A stretch of DNA of 64,000 bases from Amycolatopsis viridis (GTDB lineage Bacteria > Actinomycetota > Actinomycetes > Mycobacteriales > Pseudonocardiaceae), in assembly GCF_011758765.1 (NCBI RefSeq), contig NZ_JAANOU010000001.1:992001-1056000 (forward strand), written 5' to 3'. Of the stretch, positions 6,888 to 22,472 are shown piece after piece. Below the pieces are notes generated by a model that saw nothing but the letters and a program-made list of their open reading frames with translations, had not been told where the DNA came from and did not search any database. A program made the position numbers and the translations under genes. How positions within the stretch are numbered: position 1 is the first letter of the stretch; each line of letters begins with the position of its first letter.

Positions 6888-7097
6888 ATGAAAATCCAGG
6901 TGGACATGGATCTGTGCGAGAGCCACGGGCAGTGCGTCTTCGCCGCGCCCGCGATCTTTTCCTTCGACGACGACGACAACCTCGTCCACGCGGAAACCGC
7001 GGACGAAAGCCTGCGCGACGCCGTGGAGAAGGCAGCCGCGGCCTGCCCGGTTCGGGCCATCCGCATCGAAGCCGCCACCGGTGACGCAGCCGCATGA
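6888..7097 (+). CDS. Ferredoxin with a C-x2-H-x2-C cluster motif
   Basis: 69 residues of the Fer4 small ferredoxin family that serves P450s and related oxygenases. Only three cysteines are present (C10, C16, C53, the last followed by Pro). H13 occupies the position where a 4Fe-4S ferredoxin has the second cysteine, so a 3Fe-4S or His-ligated cluster is expected. The acidic patch FDDDDNLVH is typical for docking to a reductase. The ATG at 6888 was chosen because GAGGA lies 6 bases upstream; an ATG at 6876 overlaps the preceding stop but has no ribosome site. It overlaps the reductase gene by four bases. Confidence 0.9.
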   Translation: MKIQVDMDLCESHGQCVFAAPAIFSFDDDDNLVHAETADESLRDAVEKAAAACPVRAIRIEAATGDAAA

Positions 7098-8287: not shown

Positions 8288-8306
8288 GCGCCGGGACGGT
8301 GGCTGA

Positions 8307-8337
8307 GGCTCGCGCTCGGTGGAGCGCGGGCCTTTTT
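8307..8337 (+). terminator. Intrinsic terminator after the ferredoxin reductase gene
   Basis: GGCTCGCGCTC and GAGCGCGGGCC form an 11-bp stem with one G-T pair, followed by TTTTT. It closes the VOC operon. The stem is nearly the same as the terminator at 4624. Confidence 0.85.
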
Positions 8338-8382
8338 CGTGTCAGCCTTGACCGGGCGTAGCTGCCGTCGGCTCGCGCAAAC

Positions 8383-8422
8383 TGGGCGATCGCTTGCTTT
8401 CTTTTGCGGCGGGAGCTAGCGT
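8383..8422 (+). promoter_or_regulatory. Permease promoter with TetR-type operator site 1
   Basis: TTGCTT at 8394-8399 and TAGCGT at 8417-8422 with a 17-base spacer form a plausible promoter. The 16-mer TGGGCGATCGCTTGCT (8383-8398) overlaps the -35 element and matches the operator motif found at four other promoters of this region. The remaining sequence up to the permease start (to 8615) shows no convincing gene and would be a long leader. Confidence 0.6.
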
Positions 8423-8615
8423 GCTGTGATGCAAGCCACCCGGGCCCGGCCGGGACGCCCGTGCAGGTTCGCGGCGGACGCCGGGCTCCCGCTCGGTCCG
8501 CCGGCATCCCCACCCCGGCGGCGAGCCCGGTCCGTCCCGCTCTCGTGCCCCACACCGGGAACGGCGCCGGGTGGCGGCTCGCAGGCCCGATCCGGAACCA
8601 GTCAGGAGGTCCGTG

Positions 8616-10025
8616 GTGTCAGAGTCGACATCAGCCAAGCCTTCGTCACCGCCCCGGGGCGAATGGCCACGAAGTGGCTCCCGCCGCGAGCGGCTGAAGA
8701 ACCGTCACGTCACCCTGCTGGCCATCGGCGGCTGCATCGGTGCCTCGCTGTTCGTGGGCATCGGCGAGGTGGTCCGCTCGGCGGGGGCCGGCGCCATCCT
8801 GTCCTACGTCATCGGCGGGGTCATCGTCTTCTTCGTCATGCGGATGCTCGGCGAGATGGCCACCGCGCGTCCCGATCTCGGGTCGTTCGTCGACTACGCC
8901 CGGGAGAGCCTCGGGGCCTGGGCCGGTTTCAGCGTCGGCTGGATGTACTGGTACTTCTTCGTCGGGGTGATCGCCTTCGAAGCGGTCGTCGCCGGGCAGA
9001 TCGTCGGCGGCTGGCTCGGCATCCCGAGCTGGATCTGCTCGCTCGTGATCATGGTCGTGTTCGTCGGGGTGAACACGTACTCGGCGCGCAGTTTCGGCGA
9101 GTCCGAGTTCTTCCTCGCCAGCGTCAAGGTCGGCACGATCGTCGTTCTCGTCGTCGGTGCGGTGCTGTTCGTGCTCGGCCTCCTGCCCGGCGCGCACTTC
9201 GTCGGCGTGTCCAACCTCGGGCACGCGCCGTTCCTGGTGAACGGGTTCGAGCCGGTTGTCCGCGGTGTGGTGACGGCGGTCCTGTCGTACTTCGGCACCG
9301 AGATCGCGGTGATCGCGTCGGCGGAGTCCGAGGATCCGGGGCGCGCGGTCGTGCGCACCACGCGCCTGGCCGCCTGGCGCATCGTGTTGTTCTTCGTCGG
9401 GTCGGTGGTGGCCCTCCTGCTCGTGCTCCCGTTCTCGGAGCTGCCCACGGATTCGAGTCCGTTCGCGGCCGCGTTCAGCCGGTTCGGCATTCCGTTCTCC
9501 GCCCAGATCGTCGATGTCGTGCTGCTCGTCGCGGTGCTGTCGATCGTCAATTCGTCGATCTACGCGTGTTCCCGGACGCTCTTCCGCCTGTCGGCGAACG
9601 GCTGGGCACCGGCCTCGGTCACCACCCGCAACCGGCGAGGTGTGCCCTGGCGGGCGGTGCTCCTGAGCGGGAGCGGCGGCGTCCTCGGCGCGGCCATCAA
9701 CTTCTTCGCCTCCGAGAAGGCGTTCGCCTTCATCCTCGACTCGGCGGGGGCGGTGGCGCTGATCGTCTACGCCTTCATCTGCCTGTCGCAGCTGCGGATG
9801 CGGGCGCGGTTGTCCGCGGACGAGGTGGCGCGGCTGCCCGTCCGGATGTGGTGCCACCCGTGGTTCGCCGCGCTCTGCGCGCTGGCGCTCGTGGCGACCG
9901 ACGTCGTCATGCTCGTGCACTCCGACACCCGCATCCAGGCCGCGCTGAGCCTGGTGGCGCTCGCCGTCGTGCTGTGCGCGTACGGAATCCTCGCCGCGGT
10001 GCGAAAGCGCGCACGCAACTCCTGA
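8616..10025 (+). CDS. AAT-family amino acid permease
   Basis: 469 residues with about twelve membrane segments. The APC/AAT family pattern is clear: GCIGASLFVGIGE in the first helix and FGTEIAVIASAESEDPGRAVVRTT in the mid-protein loop, close to the CycA/GabP/AroP subgroup. It imports an amino acid or amine by proton symport. The GTG at 8616 was chosen for its 6-base spacing from AGGAGG; an adjacent GTG at 8613 is the alternative. It carries the first copy of the shared TetR-type operator upstream, so I infer that it supplies a substrate to the catabolic genes that follow. The substrate is not predictable. Confidence 0.9.
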   Translation: MSESTSAKPSSPPRGEWPRSGSRRERLKNRHVTLLAIGGCIGASLFVGIGEVVRSAGAGAILSYVIGGVIVFFVMRMLGEMATARPDLGSFVDYARESLGAWAGFSVGWMYWYFFVGVIAFEAVVAGQIVGGWLGIPSWICSLVIMVVFVGVNTYSARSFGESEFFLASVKVGTIVVLVVGAVLFVLGLLPGAHFVGVSNLGHAPFLVNGFEPVVRGVVTAVLSYFGTEIAVIASAESEDPGRAVVRTTRLAAWRIVLFFVGSVVALLLVLPFSELPTDSSPFAAAFSRFGIPFSAQIVDVVLLVAVLSIVNSSIYACSRTLFRLSANGWAPASVTTRNRRGVPWRAVLLSGSGGVLGAAINFFASEKAFAFILDSAGAVALIVYAFICLSQLRMRARLSADEVARLPVRMWCHPWFAALCALALVATDVVMLVHSDTRIQAALSLVALAVVLCAYGILAAVRKRARNS

Positions 10026-10061
10026 GATCCACCGGAAAACCCTGACTGCGCCGGGAATGCG

Positions 10062-10111
10062 TTGACACCGGCCCGAAGGCCGTGCCATATTACAAAGCGA
10101 GCGTTCGCTTT
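10062..10111 (+). promoter_or_regulatory. Promoter and perfect palindromic TetR-type operator (site 2)
   Basis: TTGACA at 10062-10067 and CATATT at 10086-10091 (18-base spacer) form a good promoter. Directly after the -10 element is the perfect palindrome AAAGCGAGCGTTCGCTTT (10094-10111), where a bound repressor would block initiation. It is the most symmetrical of the five related sites. Confidence 0.75.
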
Positions 10112-10171
10112 GAATGCGACCCGCTGCGGATCCACTTGACGAAGGGGCGACCCGTCCCAGAGGGGAAGGAA

Positions 10172-11323
10172 ATGCCGGAGTTCTGCATCGCGGGCGTGGC
10201 GGAAAGCCCGCTCGGGCACGTCACCGACCAATCCGAACCATCCATGATCGCGCTCGCCGCCATGGCCGCGCTCGACGAGGCGGGCATCGCGCGCACCGAG
10301 GTCGACGGGTTGTTCGTCAACTACCTCGGCGAGGAAGGCTCGGTGCAGCTCGGCGAGTACCTCGGCATCGAGCCCAGCCACGCCGACTCCTCGGACCTGG
10401 GTGGCGGCTCGTGGGTGGGGTTCATCGGGCACGCCATGGCGGCGATCGCGGCCGGTCAGTGCGAGGTGGCACTGCTCGCGTACGCGTCCCGTCAGCGCAC
10501 CCTGCGGAAACGCTCCCGGGCGCACGTCCTCGCTCCGCCGCCACCCGAGTCGATCACCGCGCAGTTCGACCAGCCGGCCGGGGTGCCGGTCCCCATCGGT
10601 CACTTCGCTCTCGTCACGGCCCGGCACATGTACGAGTACGGCACCACCGAGGAACAGCTCGCCTCCGTCGCCGTCACCGGGCGCGAATGGGCCCGCCTCA
10701 ACCCGAAAGCCTGGCGCCGCGACCCGCTCACCGTTGCGGACGTCCTCGCCTCGGACCGCATCTGCGGCCCGATCAAAAAACTGGACTGCTGTCCCATCAC
10801 CGACGGGGGCGGCGCCATCGTCGTCACCACGGCCGAGCGCGCCCGCGCCGCGAAGCGCCCGCCGGTCGGCATCCGGGGCTGGGGGGAGAGCCACACCCAC
10901 TGGCATCCGCACCAGCGCCGGGACATCACCTCGACGGCCGCCGTCCGGTCCGGGCGCCAAGCCTACGAAATGGCGGGCATCGGGCCGGAGGACGTGGACA
11001 TCTTCCAGCCCTACGACGCGTTCACGATCACGCCGATCCTCCAGCTCGAGGATCTCGGCTTCTGCGAAAAAGGCGCCGGTGGGGAAATGTTCGCGCAGGG
11101 ACATCTGCGGCCCGGCGGAAAGCTGCCGGCCATGACGTCCGGCGGTGGTTTGTCTTACACGCACCCGGGGGCGTTCGGGATCTTCCTGGTCATCGAGGCC
11201 GTCCGGCAACTGCGTGGCGAAGCCGGTGACCGCCAGGTGAACCCCGCGCCGAAAACCGCGCTCGTCAACGGAATTGGTGGCTTGTGCTCGTACAGCTCGA
11301 CGGTGGTGCTCACGAATGACTGA
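10172..11323 (+). CDS. Thiolase-fold protein, Ltp2-like (probable acyl-CoA aldolase subunit)
   Basis: 383 residues with the thiolase fold. The nucleophilic cysteine expected in the first core domain is replaced: DLGGGSWVGFIGHA has Ser or Gly there. A C-terminal LSYTHPGAFG keeps the His-Pro-Gly motif, and FQPYDAFTI supplies a second tyrosine. This pattern is that of Ltp2-type proteins, which with a DUF35 partner carry out retro-aldol cleavage of beta-hydroxyacyl-CoAs rather than thiolysis. The next gene encodes exactly such a DUF35 protein and overlaps by 8 bases. The ATG at 10172 follows AGGGGAAGGA. It could alternatively be a non-catalytic lipid-transfer protein. Confidence 0.85.
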   Translation: MPEFCIAGVAESPLGHVTDQSEPSMIALAAMAALDEAGIARTEVDGLFVNYLGEEGSVQLGEYLGIEPSHADSSDLGGGSWVGFIGHAMAAIAAGQCEVALLAYASRQRTLRKRSRAHVLAPPPPESITAQFDQPAGVPVPIGHFALVTARHMYEYGTTEEQLASVAVTGREWARLNPKAWRRDPLTVADVLASDRICGPIKKLDCCPITDGGGAIVVTTAERARAAKRPPVGIRGWGESHTHWHPHQRRDITSTAAVRSGRQAYEMAGIGPEDVDIFQPYDAFTITPILQLEDLGFCEKGAGGEMFAQGHLRPGGKLPAMTSGGGLSYTHPGAFGIFLVIEAVRQLRGEAGDRQVNPAPKTALVNGIGGLCSYSSTVVLTND

Positions 11324-11732
11324 CAACGACGACATCCTCGATCCGACGACGGCGGCGTTCTGGACAGCGGCCGCCGACGGGAAACTGGTCGTGCAGCGCT
11401 GCGCGGCCTGCGGCCACAGCCAGCTGTACCCGCGGCCGTTCTGCCTGGCCTGCGACTCCACGGACCTGACCTGGGCCGAGACACCCGGCCTGGGCACGGT
11501 GTACTCGTGCGTGACGGTCCACCTGCCCGTGCGCGCCGACCTGCCCCCGCCGTACAGCGTCGGGCTGGTCGAACTGGACGAGGGCCCGCGGCTGCTCGCG
11601 GCCGTCCCCGACGACGCCGCCATCGGTGACCGGGTGGCAGCTCGCTGGCAGCCGGGCGACGGTGGCGCGCGCCCCGTCCTGTCCTTCGCCCCGGCCGGCA
11701 GCCTCGCCGACGCCGCTGAGGTGGTGTCATGA
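11316..11732 (+). CDS. DUF35 / OB-fold zinc-ribbon acyl-CoA partner protein
   Basis: 138 residues. A rubredoxin-like zinc ribbon is present near the N-terminus (CAACGHSQLYPRPFCLACDS, C-x2-C and C-x2-C), followed by an OB-fold segment (GTVYSCVTVH, then the PYSVGLVELDEGPRLLA strand pair). DUF35 proteins bind the CoA part of the substrate and form obligate complexes with Ltp2-like thiolase-fold proteins. It overlaps the preceding gene by 8 bases and the next by four, implying stoichiometric, coupled translation. Confidence 0.9.
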   Translation: MTDNDDILDPTTAAFWTAAADGKLVVQRCAACGHSQLYPRPFCLACDSTDLTWAETPGLGTVYSCVTVHLPVRADLPPPYSVGLVELDEGPRLLAAVPDDAAIGDRVAARWQPGDGGARPVLSFAPAGSLADAAEVVS

Positions 11733-12652
11733 AGCCGCTCGCCGGGCTGGCCGCGATCGTCACCGGTGCGGGCAGCGGCCTGGGCCGCAGCCATGCCCTG
11801 CACCTCGCGAGCCTGGGTGCCGCCGTGGTGGTGAACGACGTCGGGCGGGCCGGTACCGGATGGCGGGCCGACGACGTGGCCGGTGAAATCACCGCGCGGG
11901 GTGGCCGCGCCGTGAGCGACCACGGCGACATCTCCAGCTGGACCCACGCAAGCGACCTGGTGGACACCTGCGTGGACGCGTTCGGGCGGCTCGACATCCT
12001 GGTCAACAATGCGGGGATCGTGCGGGACCGGACAATGGCTCGCATGGCCGAATCCGAGTGGGACGACGTCGTCCGCGTGAACCTGAAGGGCCACGCCGCC
12101 CCGGCCGTCCACGCCATGGCCCACTGGCGGAAGCAGGCGAAGAGGACCGGAGCGCCGGCGCCGGGCGCGATCGTGCACACCAGCTCCATCGGCGGCCTGA
12201 TGGCCAACTTCGGCCAGGGCAACTACACCGCCACCAAGCTGGGCATCGTCGCGCTGTCCGCGGTCCTCGCGCTCGAGGGTGCACAGCTGGGGGTGCGGTC
12301 GAACGTCATCGCGCCCTCGGCGCGCACCGAGACGACCCTGAAAGCCATGCCCTCGGCCAAGCAGTTCCCCCCGATGGGCGGCGACGACTCCGACTTCTGG
12401 GACCCGGCCAACGTCTCCCCGGTGGTCGGGTGGCTCGCGTCCCCCCGCTGCCGGGTCACCGGTCAGGTCTTCCACGTCGTCGGCAACGAGGTGCGCCTCT
12501 TCGCGCCGCCCACCGTGCTCAAGCGGTTCACCACGAACGGCCGCTGGACGGCCGACGACCTGGAGCGGCAGATCGGCCCGGAACTGACCCGGTGGCCGAC
12601 GGCGATGGACTTCCTGGACACGGTCGAGAAGGAGGCGCGTGCCGATGGGTAG
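11729..12652 (+). CDS. Short-chain dehydrogenase/reductase
   Basis: 307 residues. Classical SDR motifs: TGAGSGLG cofactor glycine loop at the N-terminus, NNAG in strand 4, a catalytic Ser in VHTSSIGG and YTATK (the YxxxK pair). The size and the ending resemble the 17-beta-hydroxysteroid dehydrogenase type 4 / MFE-like subgroup found next to thiolases and acyl-CoA enzymes. It probably oxidises or reduces a hydroxyacyl-CoA or the aldehyde/ketone released by the aldolase pair. Starts with an ATGA overlap and ends 8 bases inside the next gene. Confidence 0.92.
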   Translation: MKPLAGLAAIVTGAGSGLGRSHALHLASLGAAVVVNDVGRAGTGWRADDVAGEITARGGRAVSDHGDISSWTHASDLVDTCVDAFGRLDILVNNAGIVRDRTMARMAESEWDDVVRVNLKGHAAPAVHAMAHWRKQAKRTGAPAPGAIVHTSSIGGLMANFGQGNYTATKLGIVALSAVLALEGAQLGVRSNVIAPSARTETTLKAMPSAKQFPPMGGDDSDFWDPANVSPVVGWLASPRCRVTGQVFHVVGNEVRLFAPPTVLKRFTTNGRWTADDLERQIGPELTRWPTAMDFLDTVEKEARADG

Positions 12653-13826
12653 CCCGGGAACCCCGCTGGTCCGTCCCGCCCGCCCCGACGACGAAGCGGT
12701 GATAGCGCGGCTACGGCACCAGAGCTTTTCCGCACCGGTGGACATGGCCCTGTGGTTGGAGTACGGCCACGTCCTCGAGCTCGACGGGAGCCCGGTGGCC
12801 GCGCTGCTGGCCCGGCCGTGCGGGCAGTGGTTCGGGGGCCGGCCCGTCCCGGGAGTCACGATCTCGTCGGTCATGGTCGACCTCACGCGCCGCGGCGGCG
12901 GGGTCATGGCGCACCTGCTCGGCCCCGTCCTCGCGCACCACGCCGGGGCCGGGGCCGCCATCGCCACCCTGACCCCGTCCGCCGTGGCGCCGTACCGCCG
13001 GGCCGGGTTCGAGGTCAGCGGCTTCCGGTACCGGCACCACGTGTCGCCCCGGGCTCTGCGGCCCGGCCAGGAGATGGACGACATCCGCTGGTTCACCGCG
13101 AGCGATGCGGACCGGCTCGCCGAGGTGTACGACGCGCTCGTCCGGCGCAGCAACGGTCCGATCCACCGGGATGCGGCCTGGTGGCGGAGCCACATCCTGC
13201 CCCGCGTGCACTCCGGCGAGACGTTCGCGGTGGTCGCCGTCCGACAGGACGCGGTGACCGGCTACGCGCTGTGGGACCAGGTGAGCGCACCGCTCGGCGA
13301 GTTCACCTTCCGGCACCGGGTCCGGGCGCGCGAGATCGTGTGGACGACGGTCCCGGCGGCCCGCGCCCTGCTGCACGCCCTCGCGCAGGCCGGGTCGCCG
13401 GGCGAGGAGATCTCCTGGTTCGGCGGTCCGTCGGACGGGCTGGCGACCTTCTTCGACGCCCCGGTGGCGATGGACTGGGTCCACCCGTGGATGACGAAGA
13501 TCCTCGACCACCCGGCCGCGCTCACCGCGCGCGGCTACCACACCACCCTGGACCTGACCCTCACGCTGGGCATCCAGCTCGAGACGGGTGCTCCCGCCCG
13601 CAGCCTGGGACTCGTAGTGCGGGACGGCCGGTGCCAGGTCGGGGAAGCCGGCACCGAGCCGGACGTGACGGTGGCGGCCCGCGCGTTCGCGGCCCTCTTC
13701 ACCGGCCGGTCGACCGCGCAGGAGGCACTGGCGATGGGGCAGCTCAAGGCGCGCTCCGCAGCGGCCGTGGACCATCTCGACGCCCTGTTCGCGGGCCCCA
13801 GTCCATGGCTGTTCGAGCACTTCTGA
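12645..13826 (+). CDS. Eis-like GNAT acetyltransferase with SCP2-like C-terminus
   Basis: 393 residues, the usual length for the Eis family. An N-terminal GNAT domain (VRPARPDDEAVIARL, then ISSVMVDLTRRGGGVMAHLL with the acetyl-CoA pyrophosphate loop) is followed by a second acetyltransferase-like domain. A C-terminal sterol-carrier-like fold carries LVVRDGRCQVGEAGTEPDVTV. Eis proteins acetylate amines on antibiotics or proteins; the SCP2-like tail may bind a hydrophobic ligand. The ATG at 12645 has AAGGAGG at 9 bases; a GTG at 12639 is too close. Why an Eis-like protein sits in an acyl-CoA operon is unclear. Confidence 0.82.
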   Translation: MGSPGTPLVRPARPDDEAVIARLRHQSFSAPVDMALWLEYGHVLELDGSPVAALLARPCGQWFGGRPVPGVTISSVMVDLTRRGGGVMAHLLGPVLAHHAGAGAAIATLTPSAVAPYRRAGFEVSGFRYRHHVSPRALRPGQEMDDIRWFTASDADRLAEVYDALVRRSNGPIHRDAAWWRSHILPRVHSGETFAVVAVRQDAVTGYALWDQVSAPLGEFTFRHRVRAREIVWTTVPAARALLHALAQAGSPGEEISWFGGPSDGLATFFDAPVAMDWVHPWMTKILDHPAALTARGYHTTLDLTLTLGIQLETGAPARSLGLVVRDGRCQVGEAGTEPDVTVAARAFAALFTGRSTAQEALAMGQLKARSAAAVDHLDALFAGPSPWLFEHF

Positions 13827-13843
13827 CGTGGCCCGCGTGGCGG

Positions 13844-14428
13844 TCAGGGGGCGAGGAACCCCTGGAGCATCTCGTCGGCCACCTTGCCGAACACCTCCCG
13901 GACCGACTGGCGGCCCTTCGGGTTGAACCACATGATCGCCCAGTTCCCGACCGACAGCGTGATCAGGCGCGCGGTGTGCGGGTCCATGTTCTTGCGGAAC
14001 ACCCCGGCGTCGATCGCTTCGCCGATGATGTCGTCCCAGAGCTGCTCGTACGCCCGCCGCTGGTCGAGCACGTCCTCGAGCTCCTGGCCGGTCAGGTGCC
14101 GCCACTCGGTCAGGAAGATCCGCGGGGCCGACGCCGCGCCCACCTCGAAGTTGGACGACACGTGCGCCAGGAAGGCGGCCCGGAACTTCGCCTCCGGTTC
14201 GAGGTCGCTCTCCTGGACCTCGACGACAGCGGCCCGCTGGCGCTTGTGCGTCTCGATCACGATGTGGTGCAGCAGCGCCTCTTTGGAGGGGAAGTGCGAG
14301 TAGAGCCCGCCCGACTGCATGCCGGCCGCCTCGGCGATCGCCCGCACCGACGTTCCCTGGAACCCCAGTTCGCTGAACAACTTCGTGGCGGCGGCGACGA
14401 TTTCGTGGACACGGGTCGGACGGGGCAC
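13844..14428 (-). CDS. TetR-family repressor
   Basis: 194 residues. N-terminal helix-turn-helix: VHEIVAAATKLFSELGFQGTSVRAIAEAAGMQSGGLYSHF is textbook TetR. The C-terminal half matches the TetR_C type found in regulators of fatty-acid or aromatic acyl-CoA genes (WFNPKGRQSVREVFGKVADEMLQGFL). It starts at a GTG and is divergent from the acyl-CoA ligase gene, with an operator-like site between them. I infer that it controls the five motif copies at 8383, 10095, 14452, 18467 and 18561, probably releasing DNA on binding an acyl-CoA or the pathway substrate. Confidence 0.92.
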   Translation of the reverse strand: MPRPTRVHEIVAAATKLFSELGFQGTSVRAIAEAAGMQSGGLYSHFPSKEALLHHIVIETHKRQRAAVVEVQESDLEPEAKFRAAFLAHVSSNFEVGAASAPRIFLTEWRHLTGQELEDVLDQRRAYEQLWDDIIGEAIDAGVFRKNMDPHTARLITLSVGNWAIMWFNPKGRQSVREVFGKVADEMLQGFLAP

Positions 14429-14451
14429 AACCGCATCGTACCAGCATCAAT

Positions 14452-14467
14452 AACAAGCGCTCGCTCA
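14452..14467 (-). promoter_or_regulatory. TetR-type operator site 3
   Basis: Read on the minus strand this is TGAGCGAGCGCTTGTT. It differs at only three of sixteen positions from the site at 18467. It lies between the divergent TetR and acyl-CoA ligase starts, so it could both autoregulate the repressor and control the ligase. GAGGAG at 14473-14478 is the ligase ribosome site. Confidence 0.65.
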
Positions 14468-14486
14468 CAGATGAGGAGAAGATCGC

Positions 14487-16007
14487 ATGACACCGCACCG
14501 CCTCGCGTTCGACCACTACGTCTCCTACGGCGAGCGCATCCGGCACCTGGCGACGTCCCGCCCGGACGACGTGGCGCTGACGTTCGTCACCCACCCGGAC
14601 GGCGCGGCTGTCGAACTGACGTGGCGGGAGCTGGACGCGCGCAGCGACTCCTTCGCCTCGGGCCTCGCGGCGCGGGGCGTCGGTCCGGACAGCCTGGTCG
14701 TGGTGAAACTGCGCAACTCGGTCGAGCACGTGCTGACCACCGTGGCCGTGTGGAAGCTCGGCGCCTGCGTGGTGCCGCTCCGCTCGGACATGCCGGCCCG
14801 GGAACGCGAGCAGATCCTGCGCCTGGCGAAACCCGACGTGGTCGTCTCGCTCGATCCGGTGCCCGGCTACGAGTGCCTCACCCCGGCGGAAATCGAGACC
14901 CGGCAGGACCCGGACTGGCAGCTCGCCGACGCCCGGCCGGGCAAGGCCGTGTGCTCCGGCGGCTCCACCGGCGTGCCCAAGCTCATCTTCGATCCCTTGC
15001 CATGGGGCAATCCCGGGGCCGTGGCGGGCACCGCTGACGGTCACGCGCTCGAACCGCTGGCCCGCACCATCGGGTTCCGGCACGACCAGACCCAGCTGGT
15101 CGCCGGCCCGCTGTACCACAACGCGCCCTTCGGCTGGGGGTACTGGGGGTTGTTCTTCGGCCACCACCTCGTCGTCCTGGAGCGGTTCACCCCGGAGATG
15201 GTCGTCGACTGCGTGGAACGGTACGGCGTGAACTTCATGTTCGCCGTCCCCACCATGATGATGCGGATCATGCGGCTGGACGGTGTCGCCGACCGCGACT
15301 GGTCCAGCATCGAGTCGCTGTTCCACGGCGCGGCGTCCTGCCCGCGGTGGCTGAAGAAGCAGTGGATGGACCTGCTCGGCCCGTCCCGGGTGCGCGAGCT
15401 CTACGGCGCCACCGAGGCCATCGGCGCCTCGGCGATCACCGGCGACGAGTGGCTCGCGCACGAAGGCAGCGTCGGCAAGCCGCTCGGGTGCGATCTGCGC
15501 ATCCTCGACGACGACCAGCGCGAGCTGCCGGCCGGCGAGGTGGGCATGATCTACATGCGACCGCACTACCCGGGCCCCACCTACGAGTACCGCGGCAGCG
15601 AGCCCGCTCCGTCCACCAGCGACGGTTTCATCACGGTGGGGGACTTCGGCCGCGTCGACGACGAGGGGTACCTCTACATCGCCGACCGGCGGGTGGATCT
15701 GATCATTTCCGGCGGTGCCAACATCTTCCCCGCGGAGGTGGAGGAGGCGCTGCTGGAACACCCCGAGGTGGCCGACGCCGCTGTCATCGGCCTGCCGCAC
15801 CCGGAGTGGGGTCAGACGGTGCACGCGGTGGTGCAGCCCGCCGACGGCTCGTCCCTGACGGCCGAGGCGCTGAGCGAGTTCATGCGCGGCCAGCTGGCGG
15901 CCTACAAGCTGCCGAAGACCTACGAGCTCATCGCCCGGGTCCCGCGCGACGAAGCCGGGAAGCTGCGCCGGTCCGCCCTCCTCGCGGAACGCACGGGTTC
16001 CGCCTGA
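14487..16007 (+). CDS. Acyl-CoA ligase (AMP-binding, ANL superfamily)
   Basis: 506 residues. ANL motifs: the P-loop-like CSGGSTGVPKLI (A3), YGATEAIG (A5), GDFGRVDDEGYLYIADRRVDLIISGGANIFPAEVE (A7-A8) and the terminal catalytic Lys region DEAGKLRRSALL (A10). It activates a carboxylic acid with ATP and CoA in the cytosol. The closest family I recognise is the bile-acid / cyclohexanecarboxylate-type CoA ligase group, but the substrate cannot be fixed. The ATG at 14487 follows GAGGAGAAG. It is the natural entry step for the aldolase/SDR operon upstream. Confidence 0.92.
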   Translation: MTPHRLAFDHYVSYGERIRHLATSRPDDVALTFVTHPDGAAVELTWRELDARSDSFASGLAARGVGPDSLVVVKLRNSVEHVLTTVAVWKLGACVVPLRSDMPAREREQILRLAKPDVVVSLDPVPGYECLTPAEIETRQDPDWQLADARPGKAVCSGGSTGVPKLIFDPLPWGNPGAVAGTADGHALEPLARTIGFRHDQTQLVAGPLYHNAPFGWGYWGLFFGHHLVVLERFTPEMVVDCVERYGVNFMFAVPTMMMRIMRLDGVADRDWSSIESLFHGAASCPRWLKKQWMDLLGPSRVRELYGATEAIGASAITGDEWLAHEGSVGKPLGCDLRILDDDQRELPAGEVGMIYMRPHYPGPTYEYRGSEPAPSTSDGFITVGDFGRVDDEGYLYIADRRVDLIISGGANIFPAEVEEALLEHPEVADAAVIGLPHPEWGQTVHAVVQPADGSSLTAEALSEFMRGQLAAYKLPKTYELIARVPRDEAGKLRRSALLAERTGSA

Positions 16008-16024
16008 TCCGCCCGCCCGCACGC

Positions 16025-16061
16025 CTCAGCGGCCCGGAGGAACCTCCTCCGGGCCGCTGAG
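16025..16061. terminator. Bidirectional hairpin terminator between convergent genes
   Basis: A perfect 17-bp inverted repeat (CTCAGCGGCCCGGAGGA and complement) with a 3-base loop lies between the ligase stop and the end of the convergent M20 gene. No T-run is present, as is common in actinomycetes. Confidence 0.8.
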
Positions 16062-16079
16062 CGGTGCGCCCTGGGCGGA

Positions 16080-17294
16080 TCAGGCCGCGCGGGCCAGCTG
16101 CTGGATCGCCAGTTCCGCGTAGACCGCGGCGGCACCGGGCAGGACGCCGGGATCGAAGTCGGCGTGCGGGCTGTGGTTGTTCGGCGCGGATTCCGGGTCC
16201 AGGCCGGGCGGCGTGGCACCCAGGGCGAGGAACGCGCCCGGAACTTTCGCCAGCACGCGCGAGAAGTCCTCGGACGCGGCGATGGGATTGGCCAGTGGCC
16301 GGTACCGGTCCTCGCCGAGCAGGGACTGCGCGACCTCGGCCGCCAGCCGGACCTCCCGCTCCGTGTTGATCGTGAGCAGGGTTTCCTCCTCGAAGACGAT
16401 GTCCGCACCGACCCCGTGCGCCGCCGCGACGCCGTGCAGGGTCTCTTCCAGACGCGACAGGATCACGCCGGACGTGTGGCCGGAGAAGGTCCGGACGGTC
16501 GCTTCGAAGGTGGCGTCGTCGGGAATGACGTTGTGTTTCGTACCGGCCGCGAGGTATCCGACCGTCACCACCACCGGGTCGAAGATGTCGAAGCGCCGCG
16601 TCACCATGGCTTGCAGCGCCGTGACCATTTCCGCGGCCGCGATCACCGGGTCCTTCGCGCGGTGCGGCATCGATCCGTGGCCTCCGGCGCCGTTCACCCG
16701 CACCCGTAGCCGGTGGGAGGCCGACATGACCGGTCCGGTGCGGCTGCTGAGCACGCCGCGGGGAATCCCGGCCGAGAACACGTGCAGGGCGAAGGCGGCG
16801 TCGGCCCGGTAGCCGGCCGCGTCCAGCACCCCGTCGTTCACCATGATGCCCGCGCCGTCGTAGCCCTCTTCGCCCGGCTGGAACATGAACACCACGTCCC
16901 CGGCGATCCGGTCGCGGTGCTGGTGCAGCAGCCGCGCGGCGCCGATCAGGGACGTGGTGTGCAGGTCGTGCCCGCAGGCGTGCATCGCACCGTTGGTGGC
17001 CGCGAAGGCGAGACCGGTGCGCTCGCGGACGGGCAGCGCGTCCATGTCCGCGCGCAGGACGACCGCGTGCGGGTCCTGCTCGTCCCGTGCGCCGCCGCGC
17101 AGCACGCCGACCACCGAAGAGGTCGTCTTCCCGGTGGTGATCTCCAGCCCCAGGGGATCGAGCTCCCGCAACACGCGCTCCTGGGTTCGCGGCAGGTCGA
17201 GACCCACCTCGGGTTCGGAGTGCAGCAGGCTCCGGAGGTGGGCCAGGTCGTCCTGCATGCCACGGGCGTCGTCGAGGATGTCCATCCCGGTCAC
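16080..17294 (-). CDS. M20-family amidohydrolase (hippurate hydrolase-like)
   Basis: 404 residues. Metal-binding motifs of the M20D peptidase/amidohydrolase family are intact: VVLRADMDALPV, MHACGHDLHTTSLIGAA, FMFQPGEEGYDGAGIMV and the late ASEDFSRVL. These enzymes cleave N-acyl amino acids (hippurate, indole-acetyl conjugates) in the cytosol. The GTG at 17294 overlaps the stop of the preceding cyclase-family gene by four bases; an ATG at 17285 is the alternative, and neither has a strong ribosome site. In this context it may free an acid or amine from a conjugate before CoA activation. Confidence 0.9.
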   Translation of the reverse strand: MTGMDILDDARGMQDDLAHLRSLLHSEPEVGLDLPRTQERVLRELDPLGLEITTGKTTSSVVGVLRGGARDEQDPHAVVLRADMDALPVRERTGLAFAATNGAMHACGHDLHTTSLIGAARLLHQHRDRIAGDVVFMFQPGEEGYDGAGIMVNDGVLDAAGYRADAAFALHVFSAGIPRGVLSSRTGPVMSASHRLRVRVNGAGGHGSMPHRAKDPVIAAAEMVTALQAMVTRRFDIFDPVVVTVGYLAAGTKHNVIPDDATFEATVRTFSGHTSGVILSRLEETLHGVAAAHGVGADIVFEEETLLTINTEREVRLAAEVAQSLLGEDRYRPLANPIAASEDFSRVLAKVPGAFLALGATPPGLDPESAPNNHSPHADFDPGVLPGAAAVYAELAIQQLARAA

Positions 17295-18295
17295 CGCACC
17301 GCGACGGCGTTCGCGGGTGACCCGGTCCCGCCGGTCAGGTTCAGCGGTGTGGACACGATGAGGCAGTCCCAGCGGCCGTCGCGGGCGCAGCGCTCCGCGA
17401 GGCCGTCCAGGTCCCACAGCTCACCGAGCGGGAACCCGAGCAGTGCGATCAGGACGTTGTGCATGACGCCGGCGTAGGCGCGCGGCACCTCACCGCGGCG
17501 TTCGGCTTCCGTGATGAACGGTGAGTCGTCCGGCGCCGGATACGCCTCCACGCCGAAGTTGTCCACGGCGATCATGGCGAACTGGTGGTCCCAGAGCCAT
17601 TCCACGGTTTCCTCGCTCGCCAGCAGCCCCGATACGTGGATCGGGCTCTTTTCGTCGTGGCGCTGCTGCGGAGTCAGTTCGTGGAGGTGGCGGTGCACCC
17701 AGCCGGTCCGGATGAGCAGGATGTCGCCGGGCCGGAATTCGACGCCCTGGTCCGCTGCCGCGTCGGCGACGTCGCCGATCGGGATGCCTTCGGCCCCGGC
17801 GTGGTCGATGGGGCGGCCCTGCGCCCGGCGGTAGCGGTCCACATCGACCAGTACGCCGCGGCCGACGATGCCGCGTTCGGTGAAGCGGTTGATCCCGAGG
17901 AACGGGTCGCCCGGCTGGAAGCGTTCCGGATCGGCGCCGTTGTAGAAGCCGAACACCGGGTGGCCGATGTGCCGGAACCCGTCGATCTGGGTGCTCGCCT
18001 GCGGGTAGAAGCTGTCCAGGTACTCGTCGCGGTGGTACCCGTAGTTCGCGTACATGTTGTGCTGGAGGCTCTTGCGGTACGGGCTCATCGGCGGGTCGAA
18101 CGCCTCGAGCGGCAGGTTCAGGTTGACGACCTCCCCGGTGCGCACCGCCGCGGCCGCCGCCCGGACCCGCTCGGGGGTGAGGTGGTTCAGGGTGCCCAGC
18201 TCGTCGTCGGGTCCGAAGACGCCCCAGGCCGAACCCGCCGGCGCGTCGGTGCGCTTTCGTAGTTCCGCGTAGGTCGGAACGTGCTTCTCGTCCAT
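17291..18295 (-). CDS. Cyclase-family hydrolase (kynurenine formamidase-like fold)
   Basis: 334 residues of the Cyclase family (PF04199). The signature region STQIDGFRHIGH supplies the metal-binding Asp and His. LIRTGWVHRH, then VDNFGVEAYPAPD near the C-terminus, and PLNLTGGTGSPANAVAV are also family-typical. Members hydrolyse formamides, lactones or cyclic amides. The ATG is preceded by AGGGAGG. First gene of a two-gene operon with the M20 amidohydrolase, so the pair probably hydrolyses an amide or lactone substrate. It is divergent from the ABC importer across a 442-bp region holding two operator copies. Confidence 0.9.
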   Translation of the reverse strand: MDEKHVPTYAELRKRTDAPAGSAWGVFGPDDELGTLNHLTPERVRAAAAAVRTGEVVNLNLPLEAFDPPMSPYRKSLQHNMYANYGYHRDEYLDSFYPQASTQIDGFRHIGHPVFGFYNGADPERFQPGDPFLGINRFTERGIVGRGVLVDVDRYRRAQGRPIDHAGAEGIPIGDVADAAADQGVEFRPGDILLIRTGWVHRHLHELTPQQRHDEKSPIHVSGLLASEETVEWLWDHQFAMIAVDNFGVEAYPAPDDSPFITEAERRGEVPRAYAGVMHNVLIALLGFPLGELWDLDGLAERCARDGRWDCLIVSTPLNLTGGTGSPANAVAVR

Positions 18296-18466
18296 TTACC
18301 CTCCCTGGTAGCCGATTCACGAGTCCCGGCGTGTCTGGTGTGGATGGTTGACGCGCGTGGCCGACGAGGCCGGTGATGGTGCGGAGCAGGCGCGCGCGGA
18401 CTTGCCGCCGCGCGGAGGACGGTGCGGCCGCCACCGCCCATGAAGCTACTCCGGCGCCGCACACAT

Positions 18467-18482
18467 AGCAATCGATCGCTCA
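18467..18482 (-). promoter_or_regulatory. TetR-type operator site 4 (toward the hydrolase genes)
   Basis: Minus-strand TGAGCGATCGATTGCT, within the 442-bp divergent region 18296-18737. It lies on the side facing the cyclase/M20 operon. I see no gene in this divergent region. Confidence 0.6.
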
Positions 18483-18524
18483 GTTTTAGTGGTATCCTGG
18501 AGCCGCGGCCGACCTCTTTCGTCC

Positions 18525-18576
18525 TTGACACGGGTCGCGAGCCCCTTCTATCGTCAAACAAAGCGATCGTTCACTT
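18525..18576 (+). promoter_or_regulatory. ABC importer promoter with TetR-type operator site 5
   Basis: TTGACA at 18525-18530 and TATCGT at 18549-18554 (18-base spacer) form a promoter toward the Liv-type importer. AAGCGATCGTTCACTT (18561-18576) lies at the predicted start of transcription, as at 10094. The leader to the first gene is about 170 bases. Confidence 0.65.
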
Positions 18577-18737
18577 CGTTGCCGCTTCCATCGCAGCAGA
18601 TACCCCTGAAGACGCCACACGGCACAACGCAATGCAGGTCAAGGACGACCGGCCCAGCCGTGGGGTCGGCGTGCTCCGCGAATGGCTGCCGGGCTACCCC
18701 GGATTCAGCGACTCATGAGAGAAGGGTGTAGCGGATC

Positions 18738-19895
18738 ATGAAGAAACGAAGCAGCCTCGTGCTCGTACTTCTCGCACTGCTCGGTCCAGGAGGTGTGGCG
18801 GCCTGCGGATCCGCGGACTCCGGATCATCCGGCGACGGCTACGTGCTCGGCGCCGCGCTGCCGCTGAGCGGGGCGGCCGCCTCGTTCGGAACGGCCTACC
18901 AGCGCGGGATCGACGGCTGCGTGAACCTGGTCAACGAGCGGCACGACCTGCCCAAGCCGGTCACCGTGAAGTACGTGGACACCGGCGCCGGCGAGACCTC
19001 GAAGGGGATCGCGGCGTTCACCCAGCTCACCACGGTCGACCACGCCACGACCGTGTTCAGCGCGTACAGCTCGATCACCACCGCGCTCGCCCCGCTCGCC
19101 CAGCGCACCCGCGTGCCCGTGTTGAACGGCGGTTCGCTCAGCCCTTCCCTGGCGAACCAGCCGTGGGTGTGGAACACCGTTCCGTTCCTCAGCTCCGAAC
19201 TGTCGGCCAGCGTGCCCTACGTGAAGGAACGCATGCCGGACCGCAAGAAGGCGATGCTGATCTACCAGGACGACGTGGTGGGCAAGGACGCCGTGGGCCT
19301 GGTCCGCCAGGCGTGGGAAGGCGACGGCCGCACGCTCGACACGCTGCCGGTGGCCGTGCAACTGGCCTCGTTCTCCGCGCAGGTCGACAAGGTCAAGGCG
19401 CAGGACCCCGATGTCATCTTCCTGGTGCACTCCGGCGACCCGCAGGCGGTGCTCATCCAGCAGTTGCGGAGTGCGGGCGTGACCGCCCAGATCGTCGGCG
19501 CCTCACCGTTCCCGACCCCGGCGGTCCTCAAGCTCAAGGAGGCCGAGGGGTCGCTGTTCACCCTGCAGGCGGTGGACTTCTCGGCCAAGGACCCGACCAC
19601 GACCGGGTTCCTGCGGCTGACCGGCGCGAAACCCGGCGAAGGCGCGATCGTGGGCGAGGCGGACTACTGCAACGGCGTCCTGATGTGGGCGCAGGCCGCG
19701 AAGCGGCTGGTGGCCGAGGGTAAGGACGTCACCGGCGCGAACCTCAACGACAAGTTCGGCAGCCAGGGCCGCATCGACGCCGTCGGCGGGACCCTCGAGC
19801 TCCTGCCCGATCACACCCTCAAGTCGCCCATCGCCATCAACCAGGTCAAGGACGGGGCGTTCACCACGGTGGCCACCGTTCCCGCGGCCGGCTGA
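18738..19895 (+). CDS. Liv-type ABC transporter substrate-binding lipoprotein
   Basis: 385 residues. An N-terminal signal peptide (MKKRSSLVLVLLALLGPGG) ends in the lipobox GVAAC, so the mature protein is anchored outside the membrane by lipidated Cys23. The rest is a Peripla_BP_6 / LivK fold (GAALPLSGAAASFGTAYQRGIDGC; KKAMLIYQDDVVGKDAVGLV). The family binds branched-chain amino acids, but many members bind aromatic acids, amides or urea. Its promoter carries the local TetR-type operator, so I infer the substrate belongs to the acyl-CoA pathway rather than to general amino-acid uptake. Confidence 0.92.
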   Translation: MKKRSSLVLVLLALLGPGGVAACGSADSGSSGDGYVLGAALPLSGAAASFGTAYQRGIDGCVNLVNERHDLPKPVTVKYVDTGAGETSKGIAAFTQLTTVDHATTVFSAYSSITTALAPLAQRTRVPVLNGGSLSPSLANQPWVWNTVPFLSSELSASVPYVKERMPDRKKAMLIYQDDVVGKDAVGLVRQAWEGDGRTLDTLPVAVQLASFSAQVDKVKAQDPDVIFLVHSGDPQAVLIQQLRSAGVTAQIVGASPFPTPAVLKLKEAEGSLFTLQAVDFSAKDPTTTGFLRLTGAKPGEGAIVGEADYCNGVLMWAQAAKRLVAEGKDVTGANLNDKFGSQGRIDAVGGTLELLPDHTLKSPIAINQVKDGAFTTVATVPAAG

Positions 19896-19918: not shown

Positions 19919-20809
19919 ATGCACGAGCTAGTTCAACTGGCGGTCGGCGGGTTGTTCCTGGGCGGGATCTACGTCCTGATCGCGATCGGCATGTCCACCA
20001 TTCTCAGCGTCACCGGCATTCTGCACATCGCGCACGGCGCGAACCTCAGCCTGTGCGCCCTGACCTTTTCCGCACTGGCATCGACGAACATCCTGATCGC
20101 GGTGCTCGCCACGACCGCCGTGTCGCTGGCGTTCACCATGGCCAGTTACGAGTTCCTGTACCGGCCGATCGGCCACCGGCAGACGACGTTGTTCCCGCTG
20201 TTCCTGGTTTCGTTCGGGTTGTGGATCGTCGGCAGTTCGGTCCTGACCCTGATCTTCTCGGCCACCGCGTCCCACCCGCGCACCTCGCTCAACTCCACAA
20301 TGGACATCGGTTGGCTGCACCTGCTGAAGATCAACCTCCTGGCGTTCGGGGTCGCGATCGCCTGTTACGCCGCGACGCGGTTGTTCCTGGCGAAAACCAT
20401 GACCGGTTCGCTGATGCGGGCCGTGGCGTGCAACCGCGACATGGCAGACGTGTGGGGGACGCCGCGCCGGCGCGCGGAACGCGTCGCGTTCGCCATGGCT
20501 GCGCTGCTCGCGGTGCCGGCCGGGATATTCGTCGCGTACACCCTCGGTGCCTACCCGACGGTCGGGGACACGCCGTTGCTGATCGCGTTCTCGACCGTCA
20601 TCCTCGGCGGCGTCGGGAGCATCGCGGGCGCCGCGGGTGCCGCGCTGCTCTTCGGGGTCATCCAGGGCGTCGCGGTGTGGAAGCTCCCGGCGACCTGGCA
20701 GGACGGCGTGGTGTTCGGGGTCTTCCTGCTGCTGATCCTCGTCAGTCCCCGTGGCCTCGCCACGCTCCGCACGCGGCGTCCGGCCGGGACGAGGAGTGCG
20801 TCGAAGTGA
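19919..20809 (+). CDS. livH: Liv-type ABC transporter permease (LivH-like)
   Basis: 296 residues, eight or so membrane helices, LivH/BPD_transp_2 family (GGIYVLIAIGMSTILSVTGILHIAHGANL at the N-terminus; GGVGSIAGAAGAALLFGVIQG near the end). Forms half of the import channel with the next protein. GGAGG lies upstream of the ATG, and the stop overlaps the GTG of the LivM-like gene by four bases. The symbol reflects family, not proven substrate. Confidence 0.92.
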   Translation: MHELVQLAVGGLFLGGIYVLIAIGMSTILSVTGILHIAHGANLSLCALTFSALASTNILIAVLATTAVSLAFTMASYEFLYRPIGHRQTTLFPLFLVSFGLWIVGSSVLTLIFSATASHPRTSLNSTMDIGWLHLLKINLLAFGVAIACYAATRLFLAKTMTGSLMRAVACNRDMADVWGTPRRRAERVAFAMAALLAVPAGIFVAYTLGAYPTVGDTPLLIAFSTVILGGVGSIAGAAGAALLFGVIQGVAVWKLPATWQDGVVFGVFLLLILVSPRGLATLRTRRPAGTRSASK

Positions 20810-21750
20810 TCGAGTACCTGACGACCGTGGGAACCCTCACGGGGATCTTCGCCATCGCCGGGGCCGGCCTGAACATCACGCTCGGCTACGCGGGCGTCTT
20901 CTCGGCCGCCCAGGCGGTCTTCGTCGGCATCGGCGCGTACACGACCGCGCTGCTCGGGCCGCGCGTGGACGGCTCCTTCCTCGTCTGCGCGCTCGTGGGC
21001 ACCGGGCTGGCGATGGTCGCCGCGATCGCACTGGCGTCCACCGGATTGCGGGTGAGCGACGAATACTTCATCGTCGCCTCGCTGGCCTTCCAGATCATCA
21101 TCTCGACCGTCTTCGCGAGCTGGTACTCGGTGACGAAAGGGGCCGACGGGATATCCGGTGTGCCCTACCCCCAGGTGTTCGGGATCGAGCTGGGGACACA
21201 CGGCGCGGGATCGGCGCTGGTGTGGACGATCGCGATCCTCGTCGTCGCCCTGACCGCGGTGCTGCGCCGGGGCGCGGCCGGCCGGTTGTTCTTCGCGATC
21301 CGCGAAGACCCGGTCGCGACGGAGACGCTGGGGCGCAGCCCGGTCGTCGGCAAGTACGCCGCGATCGTCCTGGGGGCCGGCGTGTCCGCGCTCGGCGGCG
21401 TGCTCTACGCCTTCTACACCGGCTTCGTGAACGCGCCGACGTTCGGCTACTCGCTGTCGATCGAACTGGTCGCGATCGTGGTCGTCGGTGGCATCGGCCT
21501 GTCCATCGGCCCGATCATCGGCGGCGCGATCATCGTCGCCGCCATCCCGCTGATCAGCCTGCTCGACCTGCCGTCCACGGTCGTCGGGCCGCTCCAGCAA
21601 TTGGTCTACGGAGCGCTGATCATCGCCGTGGTCGTGCTGCGCGGCTATTTCTCCGCCGGCAGCGCCCTGCGCGGCCGGATGGTGCGGCGGCTCAAGGAAA
21701 TGCGCCCGGAGCCCTCGGGGCCGGCGAGTGGCGGGAAGGTGACGTCATGA
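20806..21750 (+). CDS. livM: Liv-type ABC transporter permease (LivM-like)
   Basis: 314 residues and about eight to ten membrane helices; LivM signatures GLNITLGYAGVFSAAQAVFVGIGAYTTALL and the cytoplasmic REDPVATETLG loop (EAA-like contact with the ATPase). The GTG start at 20806 was chosen because it overlaps the LivH stop; the open frame upstream of it is antisense-like noise. Ends with an ATGA overlap into the ATPase gene. Confidence 0.92.
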   Translation: MIEYLTTVGTLTGIFAIAGAGLNITLGYAGVFSAAQAVFVGIGAYTTALLGPRVDGSFLVCALVGTGLAMVAAIALASTGLRVSDEYFIVASLAFQIIISTVFASWYSVTKGADGISGVPYPQVFGIELGTHGAGSALVWTIAILVVALTAVLRRGAAGRLFFAIREDPVATETLGRSPVVGKYAAIVLGAGVSALGGVLYAFYTGFVNAPTFGYSLSIELVAIVVVGGIGLSIGPIIGGAIIVAAIPLISLLDLPSTVVGPLQQLVYGALIIAVVVLRGYFSAGSALRGRMVRRLKEMRPEPSGPASGGKVTS

Positions 21751-22472
21751 CCCTGCAGGTGAACGATGTCCGCGTGGCGTTCGGCGGGCTGGTTGCGCTG
21801 GACGGTGTCTCGCTGACCGCCGAACCGGGAGCCGTCACCGCTCTGATCGGTCCGAACGGAGCCGGCAAGACGACGTTGTTCAACGTCATCTCGGGCCTCA
21901 TCGAACCGGAGAGCGGGAGCATCCGCCTGGACGACGCCGAACTGCTCCGGCGTTCGGCCCGCCGGCGCGCGCGGATGGGCATCGTGCGCTCGTTCCAGGA
22001 ATTGCGGCTCTTCGGGGGCGTCTCGGTGCAGGAGCAGACGGTGTTCGCGGCCGAGCGGACCGTTTTCACCCGCTCCCACCACACGCGAGTGCGCGCCACG
22101 CAGATCCTGGACCGCCTCGGGTTGTCCGGGGCCCGGCGCGACCTCGCCGCCAACCTCAGCTACGGGCAGCAGAAGGCGGTGTCGATCGCCCGCATGCTGG
22201 CCATGAACGGCCGGGCGTGGCTGCTCGACGAGCAGGCCGCCGGACTCGCCCCGCGGGAGTACGACCTGTTCTGCGAAGTGGTGACCGAGGCCAAGGAACG
22301 CGGCCTGATCATCCTGTTGATCGAACACAACCTCCAGCTGGTCCGGGACCTGGCCGATGTGGTCGTGTTCCTCGACCGGGGACGGGAACTCGCCACCGGC
22401 ACGGCGGACGAGGTGTTCTCCGACGAGGTGGTGCGGGCGCTCTACTTCGGCAAGCGAGACCAGGAGGTCTGA
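21747..22472 (+). CDS. livG: Liv-type ABC transporter ATPase (LivG-like)
   Basis: 241 residues. Walker A GPNGAGKTT, Q-loop in VRSFQELRLFGG, signature LSYGQQ (Tyr in place of the second usual residue), Walker B AWLLDEQAAGLAP with Gln after the catalytic Glu where most family members have Pro, and the H-loop in LLIEHNLQLV. It is somewhat shorter than typical LivG (about 255). Couples ATP hydrolysis to import in the cytosol. Stop and next start share the bases TGATG. Confidence 0.92.
   Translation: MTLQVNDVRVAFGGLVALDGVSLTAEPGAVTALIGPNGAGKTTLFNVISGLIEPESGSIRLDDAELLRRSARRRARMGIVRSFQELRLFGGVSVQEQTVFAAERTVFTRSHHTRVRATQILDRLGLSGARRDLAANLSYGQQKAVSIARMLAMNGRAWLLDEQAAGLAPREYDLFCEVVTEAKERGLIILLIEHNLQLVRDLADVVVFLDRGRELATGTADEVFSDEVVRALYFGKRDQEV

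What the first reader, a model, noticed from the sequence alone, without database searches (positions are those of the whole stretch)
8383..18576. Five copies of one TetR-type operator define a candidate catabolic regulon
The motif RGCGAKCGNTYRYT occurs at 8383-8398, 10095-10110, 14452-14467, 18467-18482 and 18561-18576. Each lies in a promoter region of an AAT permease, an Ltp2-like/DUF35/SDR/Eis operon, the TetR/acyl-CoA ligase pair, an M20-cyclase hydrolase operon or a Liv-type importer. In three cases it overlaps a recognisable -35/-10 pair. The regulator is presumably the TetR at 13844. Together these genes look like uptake, amide/lactone hydrolysis, CoA activation and retro-aldol cleavage of an unidentified acid or amide.
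Basis: partly seen in the sequence, partly recalled or inferred. Interest (0 to 1): 0.75.

Follow-up and report, generated by a model that had tools for sequence, protein, structure and literature searches.

The report
Self-regulated TetR catabolic gene module
Five copies of one short DNA switch sit at the promoters of a 15-kb set of uptake and breakdown genes, and the same switches recur at the same promoters in distantly related soil actinobacteria, so this is very probably one self-controlled pathway for a still unknown nutrient.

Summary
The motif occurs five times in the window (0.09 expected) and nine times in the 5.68-Mb genome; five of the nine lie within 10.2 kb, each in a promoter region of this cluster. 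The decisive evidence is comparative. The cluster recurs in a sister genome (TetR 98% identical), another Pseudonocardiaceae genome (74%), Amycolatopsis jejuensis (73%) and, in another order, Sphaerisporangium rufum (76%). A matrix trained only on the five window sites finds an operator at 13 of 13 orthologous promoters in the three divergent loci, as the top-scoring positions. Operators either follow the -10 box (ltp2-like operon, importer) or cover an inferred -35 region (permease, cyclase, tetR), which fits repression by occlusion. The motif is a relative of the KstR2 operator; a true KstR2 with its own sites lies 2.35 Mb away. The enzymes suggest import of an N-acyl-amino-acid-like compound, amide hydrolysis, CoA activation and C-C cleavage by a thiolase-fold enzyme without a nucleophilic cysteine. 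The substrate is unknown and nothing was tested at the bench. New member of a known kind: a clean, rare KstR2-style regulon for a pathway I did not find described.

The parts
8385..8398 (+). operator O1, permease promoter; its 3' end lies in the inferred -35 (TTGCTT 8394-8399, spacer 17, TAGCGT 8417-8422)
   Evidence: TTGCTT-17-TAGCGT also in L013, L016, L018
8613..10025 (+). APC amino-acid permease (AA_permease; GABA-permease-like, below the equivalog cut-off)
10062..10091 (+). sigma-70-type promoter TTGACA-18-CATATT of the ltp2-like operon
10096..10109 (+). operator O2, 4 nt after the second hexamer
10172..11323 (+). thiolase-fold, Ltp2-like putative C-C lyase (YDAF, THPG, no cysteine in the nucleophile stretch)
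11316..11732 (+). DUF35 partner (zf-ChsH2 + OB_ChsH2_C)
   Evidence: (ORF from 11274), for the start
11729..12652 (+). SDR, (3R)-hydroxyacyl-CoA dehydrogenase-like
12639..13826 (+). Eis-like GNAT acetyltransferase with SCP2-type domain (start uncertain)
13844..14428 (-). TetR-family regulator (TetR_N + TetR_C_24); inferred leaderless -10 TACGAT 14440-14435, 6 nt before the GTG
14452..14465 (-). operator O3, shared by divergent tetR and acyl-CoA ligase
14487..16007 (+). acyl-CoA ligase, nearest solved relative bile acid-CoA ligase
16080..17294 (-). M20 amidohydrolase (TIGR01891); overlaps the cyclase stop by 4 nt
   Evidence: scanned as the longer ORF to 17417
17291..18295 (-). PF04199 cyclase-family hydrolase
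18467..18480 (-). operator O4, cyclase-M20 promoter; covers inferred -35 (TTGCTA, spacer 17, TAGCTT 18448-18443)
18525..18554 (+). sigma-70-type promoter TTGACA-18-TATCGT of the importer operon
18562..18575 (+). operator O5, 7 nt after the second hexamer
18738..19895 (+). periplasmic binding protein (Peripla_BP_6)
19919..20809 (+). LivH/UrtB-type permease
20806..21750 (+). LivM-type permease by position (gene call only, not scanned alone)
21747..22472 (+). LivG-type ATPase
   Evidence: (within 20751-22472)
22472..23182 (+). LivF-type ATPase by position (ABC_tran domain)
   Evidence: (within 22217-23182)
8305..8334 (+). terminator-like hairpin (13 pairs) after the ferredoxin-reductase gene: likely upstream border

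Best explanation
A local, autoregulated TetR repressor (13844-14428) controls five promoter regions through a 14-bp palindrome, AGCRANCGNTYGCT. Shown by sequence: the sites, their placement, and their conservation with the genes in three divergent loci. Inferred: without substrate the repressor occupies all five sites and blocks RNA polymerase, either by covering the -35 region (permease, cyclase-M20, tetR) or by sitting directly after the -10 (ltp2-like operon, importer). When substrate enters, it is hydrolysed by the M20 and cyclase enzymes; the freed acid is joined to CoA by the ligase divergent from tetR; that acyl-CoA or a later one releases the repressor. The thiolase-fold enzyme with its DUF35 partner then cleaves a C-C bond, probably by retro-aldol chemistry, with the SDR acting before or after it. 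Substrate guess: an N-acyl amino acid or similar amide whose acyl part carries a beta-hydroxyl.
For: Sites far above chance and concentrated here. The cluster recurs in four other genomes, save that in A. jejuensis the contig ends before the importer and in the S. rufum stretch no permease was matched. With a matrix trained on the window's five sites only, 13 of 13 orthologous promoters in L015/L016 (5), L017 (4) and L018 (4) carry a site scoring 13.8-21.7; apart from a register-shifted overlap of one site (L015 15376, 15.0) the best other position scores 11.8, and 0.19-0.32 sites of 13.8 or more are expected per locus in first-order Markov sequence. Operators stand out in promoter alignments. 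The two consensus promoters found in 10.5 kb abut operators. Closest folds to the TetR model include PfmR, KstR2, AibR (entries with isovaleryl-CoA) and FadR (entry with stearoyl-CoA). The thiolase-fold protein keeps the Tyr of the YDxF motif that is the catalytic base in Ltp2 and Sal (PMC12329534, passages), where true thiolases have HDAF, and has no cysteine in the nucleophile stretch in 4 of 4 orthologues.
Against: No binding, expression or growth data. The inducer class rests on fold neighbours, which also include DarR (c-di-AMP); Arg162 of KstR2, which I recall as a ligand contact, has no evident counterpart (by eye). The enzyme's YDAF lacks the His of Ltp2's YDHF and the Cys of Sal's YDCY, and it keeps a thiolase-like HPxG His, so retro-aldol activity is unproven; absence of the C-terminal thiolase Cys does not discriminate, since the aligned archaeal thiolase and BbsB lack it too. 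No acyl-CoA dehydrogenase or hydratase was recognised among the cluster genes scanned. The ligase promoter has no clear -10. The permease site of A. jejuensis is weak (13.8 against 11.8 for the next position).
Confidence: 0.85

Rival explanations
1. The sites belong to another TetR, notably the genome's KstR2, and the cluster is an outlying part of the cholesterol regulon.
For: Operators are related in design: KstR2 motif AnCAAGnnCTTGnT (PMC3068626, passages); the genome has a KstR2 orthologue (188 bits to 4w97) with about nine such sites at 3.34-3.37 Mb, one a hybrid (AGCGATCGCTTGGT). The two site sets overlap slightly: one G036 site of this regulon scores 19.7 with the KstR2-like matrix, whose own weakest site scores 19.0.
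Against: The five window sites reach 2.6-17.6 with a matrix from the nine KstR2-like sites, against 19.0-24.9 for those nine (each matrix scored on its own training sites). The window's TetR gene lies with the sites in each locus found and has one at its own promoter.
Confidence: 0.05
2. The motif is a chance GC-rich palindrome; the clustering is accidental.
For: With 2 mismatches the motif is no commoner than in shuffles.
Against: Exact density and cross-genome conservation.
Confidence: 0.01
3. The regulon is real but serves detoxification of a bioactive amide (for example a signal, phytohormone conjugate or antibiotic) rather than nutrition; the Eis-like acetyltransferase inactivates an amine.
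For: Eis-like GNAT in the operon; M20 protein close to a plant IAA-amino acid hydrolase homologue and to N-alpha-acyl-glutamine aminoacylase; rare occurrence.
Against: Two importers and a CoA-ligase/C-C lyase branch look assimilatory; no efflux pump recognised among the regulon genes scanned.
Confidence: 0.15

Closest known systems
KstR2 regulon (cholesterol ring catabolism)
   Same: TetR repressor, 14-bp palindrome of the same layout in several divergent promoter regions beside the regulator gene, including its own (PMC3068626, passages)
   Different: distinct half-site (AGCRA against ACCAAG/AGCAAG); 59 bits to KstR2 against 188 for the orthologue in this genome; different enzymes
PfmR / AibR / FadR repressors (acyl-CoA response of PfmR recalled; AibR and FadR have acyl-CoA entries)
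   Same: among the closest folds to the TetR model
   Different: 19-31% identity; ligand untested here
Ltp2-ChsH2(DUF35) and Sal-Shy(DUF35) steroid side-chain aldolases
   Same: thiolase fold with a DUF35 gene beside it; YDxF Tyr kept; no nucleophilic cysteine
   Different: third motif residue Ala, HPxG His retained; nearest solved relative is 4u4e, named only 'Thiolase'
BbsAB benzoylsuccinyl-CoA thiolase
   Same: thiolase-like plus DUF35 pair (SDR partners recalled)
   Different: BbsB has HDAF where this has YDAF; NCBIfam cut-offs not met
qsd operon of Rhodococcus (TetR QsdR, lactonase QsdA, acyl-CoA ligase QsdC)
   Same: TetR repressor beside a hydrolase and a CoA ligase (PMC6262395, passages)
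   Different: smaller gene set; homology not tested here

Membership tests
TetR family | TetR_N domain above gathering score | tested here: met
   63.0 bits against 24
KstR2 orthologues | full-length orthology to KstR2 | tested here: not met
   59 bits to 4w97; the genome's other TetR scores 188
KstR2 orthologues | operator AnCAAGnnCTTGnT | tested here: not met
   window sites score 2.6-17.6 with a KstR2-like matrix, its own sites 19.0-24.9; one of the 13 sites in relatives reaches 19.7
ScbR-type autoregulator receptors | NCBIfam NF041196 cut-off 150 bits | tested here: not met
   62 bits
acyl-CoA-responsive TetR repressors | release from DNA by an acyl-CoA | not testable with these tools
   only fold neighbours
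Claisen thiolases | nucleophilic Cys near residue 90 | tested here: not met
   no Cys in the stretch LGIEP...AAIAAG in 4 of 4 orthologues nor in three plasmid relatives; place of the nucleophile recalled from family knowledge
Claisen thiolases | His of the HPxG motif | tested here: met
   HPGAF in 4 of 4; motif recalled
Ltp2/Sal aldolases | Tyr of the YDxF motif | tested here: met
   YDAF in 4 of 4; motif from PMC12329534
Ltp2/Sal aldolases | second catalytic residue: Tyr344 (Ltp2) or Cys of YDCY (Sal) | tested here: not met
   Ala in YDAF; Tyr344 aligns with the His of THPG
Ltp2/Sal aldolases | retro-aldol activity on a beta-hydroxyacyl-CoA | not testable with these tools
   needs enzyme assay
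M20 amidohydrolase TIGR01891 | curated cut-off 153.75 bits | tested here: met
   282.8 bits
bile acid-CoA ligase BaiB | NF038344 cut-off 650 bits | tested here: not met
   418.4 bits
GABA permease | TIGR01773 cut-off 678.1 bits | tested here: not met
   416.5 bits

The most novel reading that the evidence does not exclude
A horizontally spread, self-contained module (import, hydrolysis, activation, cleavage, switch) that consumes a specific N-acyl-amino-acid-type signal or hormone conjugate, using a representative of a widespread but uncharacterised class of thiolase-fold lyase (YD[AS]F plus HPG, no nucleophilic cysteine, DUF35 gene beside it) that is neither a thiolase nor a known steroid aldolase.
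Probability: 0.12. Interest if true: 0.65.

Novelty: new member of a known kind. Interest (0 to 1): 0.42.

Why it matters
It gives a sharply bounded set of 14 genes in about six transcription units under five operators, and a short list of assays that would identify an unknown catabolic pathway. A TetR that reports on the ligase product would also be a ready biosensor. The thiolase-fold enzyme would extend DUF35-linked lyases beyond steroids if its activity is confirmed.

Tried and rejected
Considered and rejected: chance palindrome; KstR2 control; membership in the KstR2, ScbR, BaiB or GABA-permease families (membership table); the near-match at 5460 (score 16.8) as a sixth site, because it encodes the IERSLPFY stretch of a glyoxalase-family ORF (by eye; family).

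Led nowhere: the looser pattern RGYRANCGNTYRYY is only about twice its control genome-wide (92 against 43 in G000, both strands). The binding-protein model has mean pLDDT 58 and was not searched; its sequence alignments gave me no ligand clue. Papers joining these gene terms, or the operator words, were not found (0 listed each; open-licence library only). Plasmid relatives of the thiolase-like protein are all below 60% identity (140 records); I opened 3 of the 140 neighbourhoods. A DUF35-like (OB-fold or 'nucleic-acid-binding') gene lies beside it in 2 of 3, SDR or ligase genes are near in 2 of 3, and no M20 or cyclase gene is annotated in any of the 3 stretches.

Errors and dropped rows: the Eis row from L016 was read in a wrong frame (my coordinates) and is disregarded. 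Of ten KstR2-like regex matches one (L036 10993) was left out of the nine used.
Full report
Observation. The motif gives five exact matches in the window against 0.09 expected and nine in the whole 5.68-Mb genome. Five of those nine lie in 10.2 kb. The four outside are single, and three of them lie inside ORFs that look coding by eye. The two operators at 18467 and 18562 serve the divergent cyclase-M20 operon and importer.

Occurrence. The TetR orthologue is rare: 3 of 200 genomes of the family, 3 of 397 of the order, 1 of 394 of the class, each count including the window's own genome and each search scoring only the best 8-16 candidates per genome. The thiolase-like protein at high similarity is in 4 of 390 of the family and 1 of 396 of the phylum. 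A scan of named genomes gave four loci, of which two are true relatives (74-77% over the whole protein): Sphaerisporangium rufum (Streptosporangiales) and Amycolatopsis jejuensis (Pseudonocardiaceae); the other two match only a segment at 35-38%. G640 is the A. jejuensis genome: a 400-base piece of its locus L033 lies in L018. The cluster genes lie together in all of these, with two gaps: in L018 the contig ends before the importer, and in the L017 stretch no permease gene was matched.

Identities. Window-to-relative identities of six proteins range over 69-90%. S. rufum proteins are about as close to the window as those of G036 from its own family (for example TetR 76 and 74%), while A. jejuensis is closest for four of the six. 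Together with the patchy occurrence this suggests horizontal transfer, but no tree was built.

Operator conservation. A matrix from the five window sites alone finds sites at the 13 orthologous promoters that exist in L015/L016 (5), L017 (4) and L018 (4), with scores 13.8-21.7. In each locus these are the highest-scoring positions, apart from a register-shifted overlap of one site. G092 carries all five, but at 98% TetR identity this adds little. The 18-site consensus is AGCRANCGNTYGCT with an invariant central CG. Alignments show the operators as conserved blocks in largely divergent promoter DNA.

Promoter anatomy. The scan finds two sigma-70-type promoters in 8300-18800, at 10062-10091 and 18525-18554, and an operator follows each after 4 or 7 nt. 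At the permease, TTGCTT-17-TAGCGT begins inside the operator and is kept in the four sequences that have this promoter. At the cyclase, TTGCTA-17-TAGCTT does the same in the window and G092, with similar arrangements in L017 and L018 but no clear -10 in L015. For tetR, a TAYNAT hexamer lies 6-7 nt before the start codon, the usual look of a leaderless actinobacterial transcript (recalled), and the operator covers the -35 place (read by eye). The ligase promoter has no clear hexamers. A 13-pair hairpin with T-rich tail at 8305-8334 separates the regulon from the upstream ferredoxin-reductase gene.

Which regulator. The operator resembles that of KstR2. The genome holds a separate KstR2 orthologue near 3.355 Mb (188 bits to the solved protein) with its own ACCAAGCGCTTGGT-type sites. 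By matrix score the window's five sites are clear of the KstR2 set, although over all 18 sites the two sets overlap slightly: 19.7 for one G036 site against 19.0 for the weakest KstR2-like site. The window's TetR is a cousin, not KstR2 (59 bits). Its predicted fold (mean pLDDT 84.7) is nearest to PfmR, KstR2 and AibR. Several of these sense acyl-CoAs, hence the inferred inducer, though DarR (c-di-AMP) is also in the list. The ligase gene shares an operator with tetR, so its product is the first candidate.

Chemistry. The M20 protein passes the amidohydrolase model TIGR01891 and is near the solved IAA-amino acid hydrolase homologue and N-alpha-acyl-glutamine aminoacylase. The ligase is nearest to the solved bile acid-CoA ligase but below the BaiB cut-off. 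The SDR is nearest to a (3R)-hydroxyacyl-CoA dehydrogenase. The thiolase-like protein has YDAF and an HPG His and no cysteine in the nucleophile stretch in 4 of 4 orthologues. Three plasmid relatives at 45-50% share these features (YDAF or YDSF), so this is a widespread group rather than a private invention of the cluster. In Ltp2 and Sal the Tyr of this motif is the catalytic base (PMC12329534, passages), but their second catalytic residue is not conserved here. Retro-aldol cleavage is therefore the best guess, not a finding. The substrate is not identified.

Verdict. A real, autoregulated, conserved TetR regulon, by sequence evidence, over a catabolic module that I did not find described in the papers searched. 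The kind is well known; this member and its pathway are the news.

Noticed in passing
G000:C1 3.339-3.370 Mb (L035, L036): KstR2 orthologue (L035:19305-19862) with about nine KstR2-type operators; one site at L035 14132 (AGCGATCGCTTGGT) is a hybrid of the KstR2 motif and this regulon's motif.
   Followed up: partly
window 23179-24299; L018 11552-12657: An Lrp-like regulator (by eye) divergent from an ACT-domain, acetolactate-synthase-small-subunit-like gene lies beside the cluster both here and in A. jejuensis (69% and 45% identity), without this operator; not matched in the G036 and S. rufum stretches.
   Followed up: partly
window 24333-27737: Genes resembling E1-alpha, E1-beta and E2 of a 2-oxo-acid dehydrogenase complex follow the ACT gene.
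   Followed up: no
window 6888-8287: Small ORF that looks like a ferredoxin (by eye) followed by a ferredoxin-reductase-like gene; no partner oxygenase was looked for.
   Followed up: no
window 5460-5473: One-mismatch copy of the operator inside the coding sequence of a glyoxalase-family gene; also in the sister genome, probably because the protein is conserved.
   Followed up: partly
L018 2448-4270: Two extra ORFs (375 and 192 aa by gene call) between the M20 and ligase genes in A. jejuensis.
   Followed up: no
L037, L038, L039 (plasmid loci): Plasmid relatives of the thiolase-like protein at 45-50% identity share YD[AS]F, HPG and the missing cysteine in otherwise different catabolic gene sets: an uncharacterised group worth an enzymologist's look.
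   Followed up: partly
PDB 4mxm / 4mo7: A TetR-fold relative of this regulator is named transcriptional regulator I2 in one listing and superantigen PfiT in the entry title.
   Followed up: no
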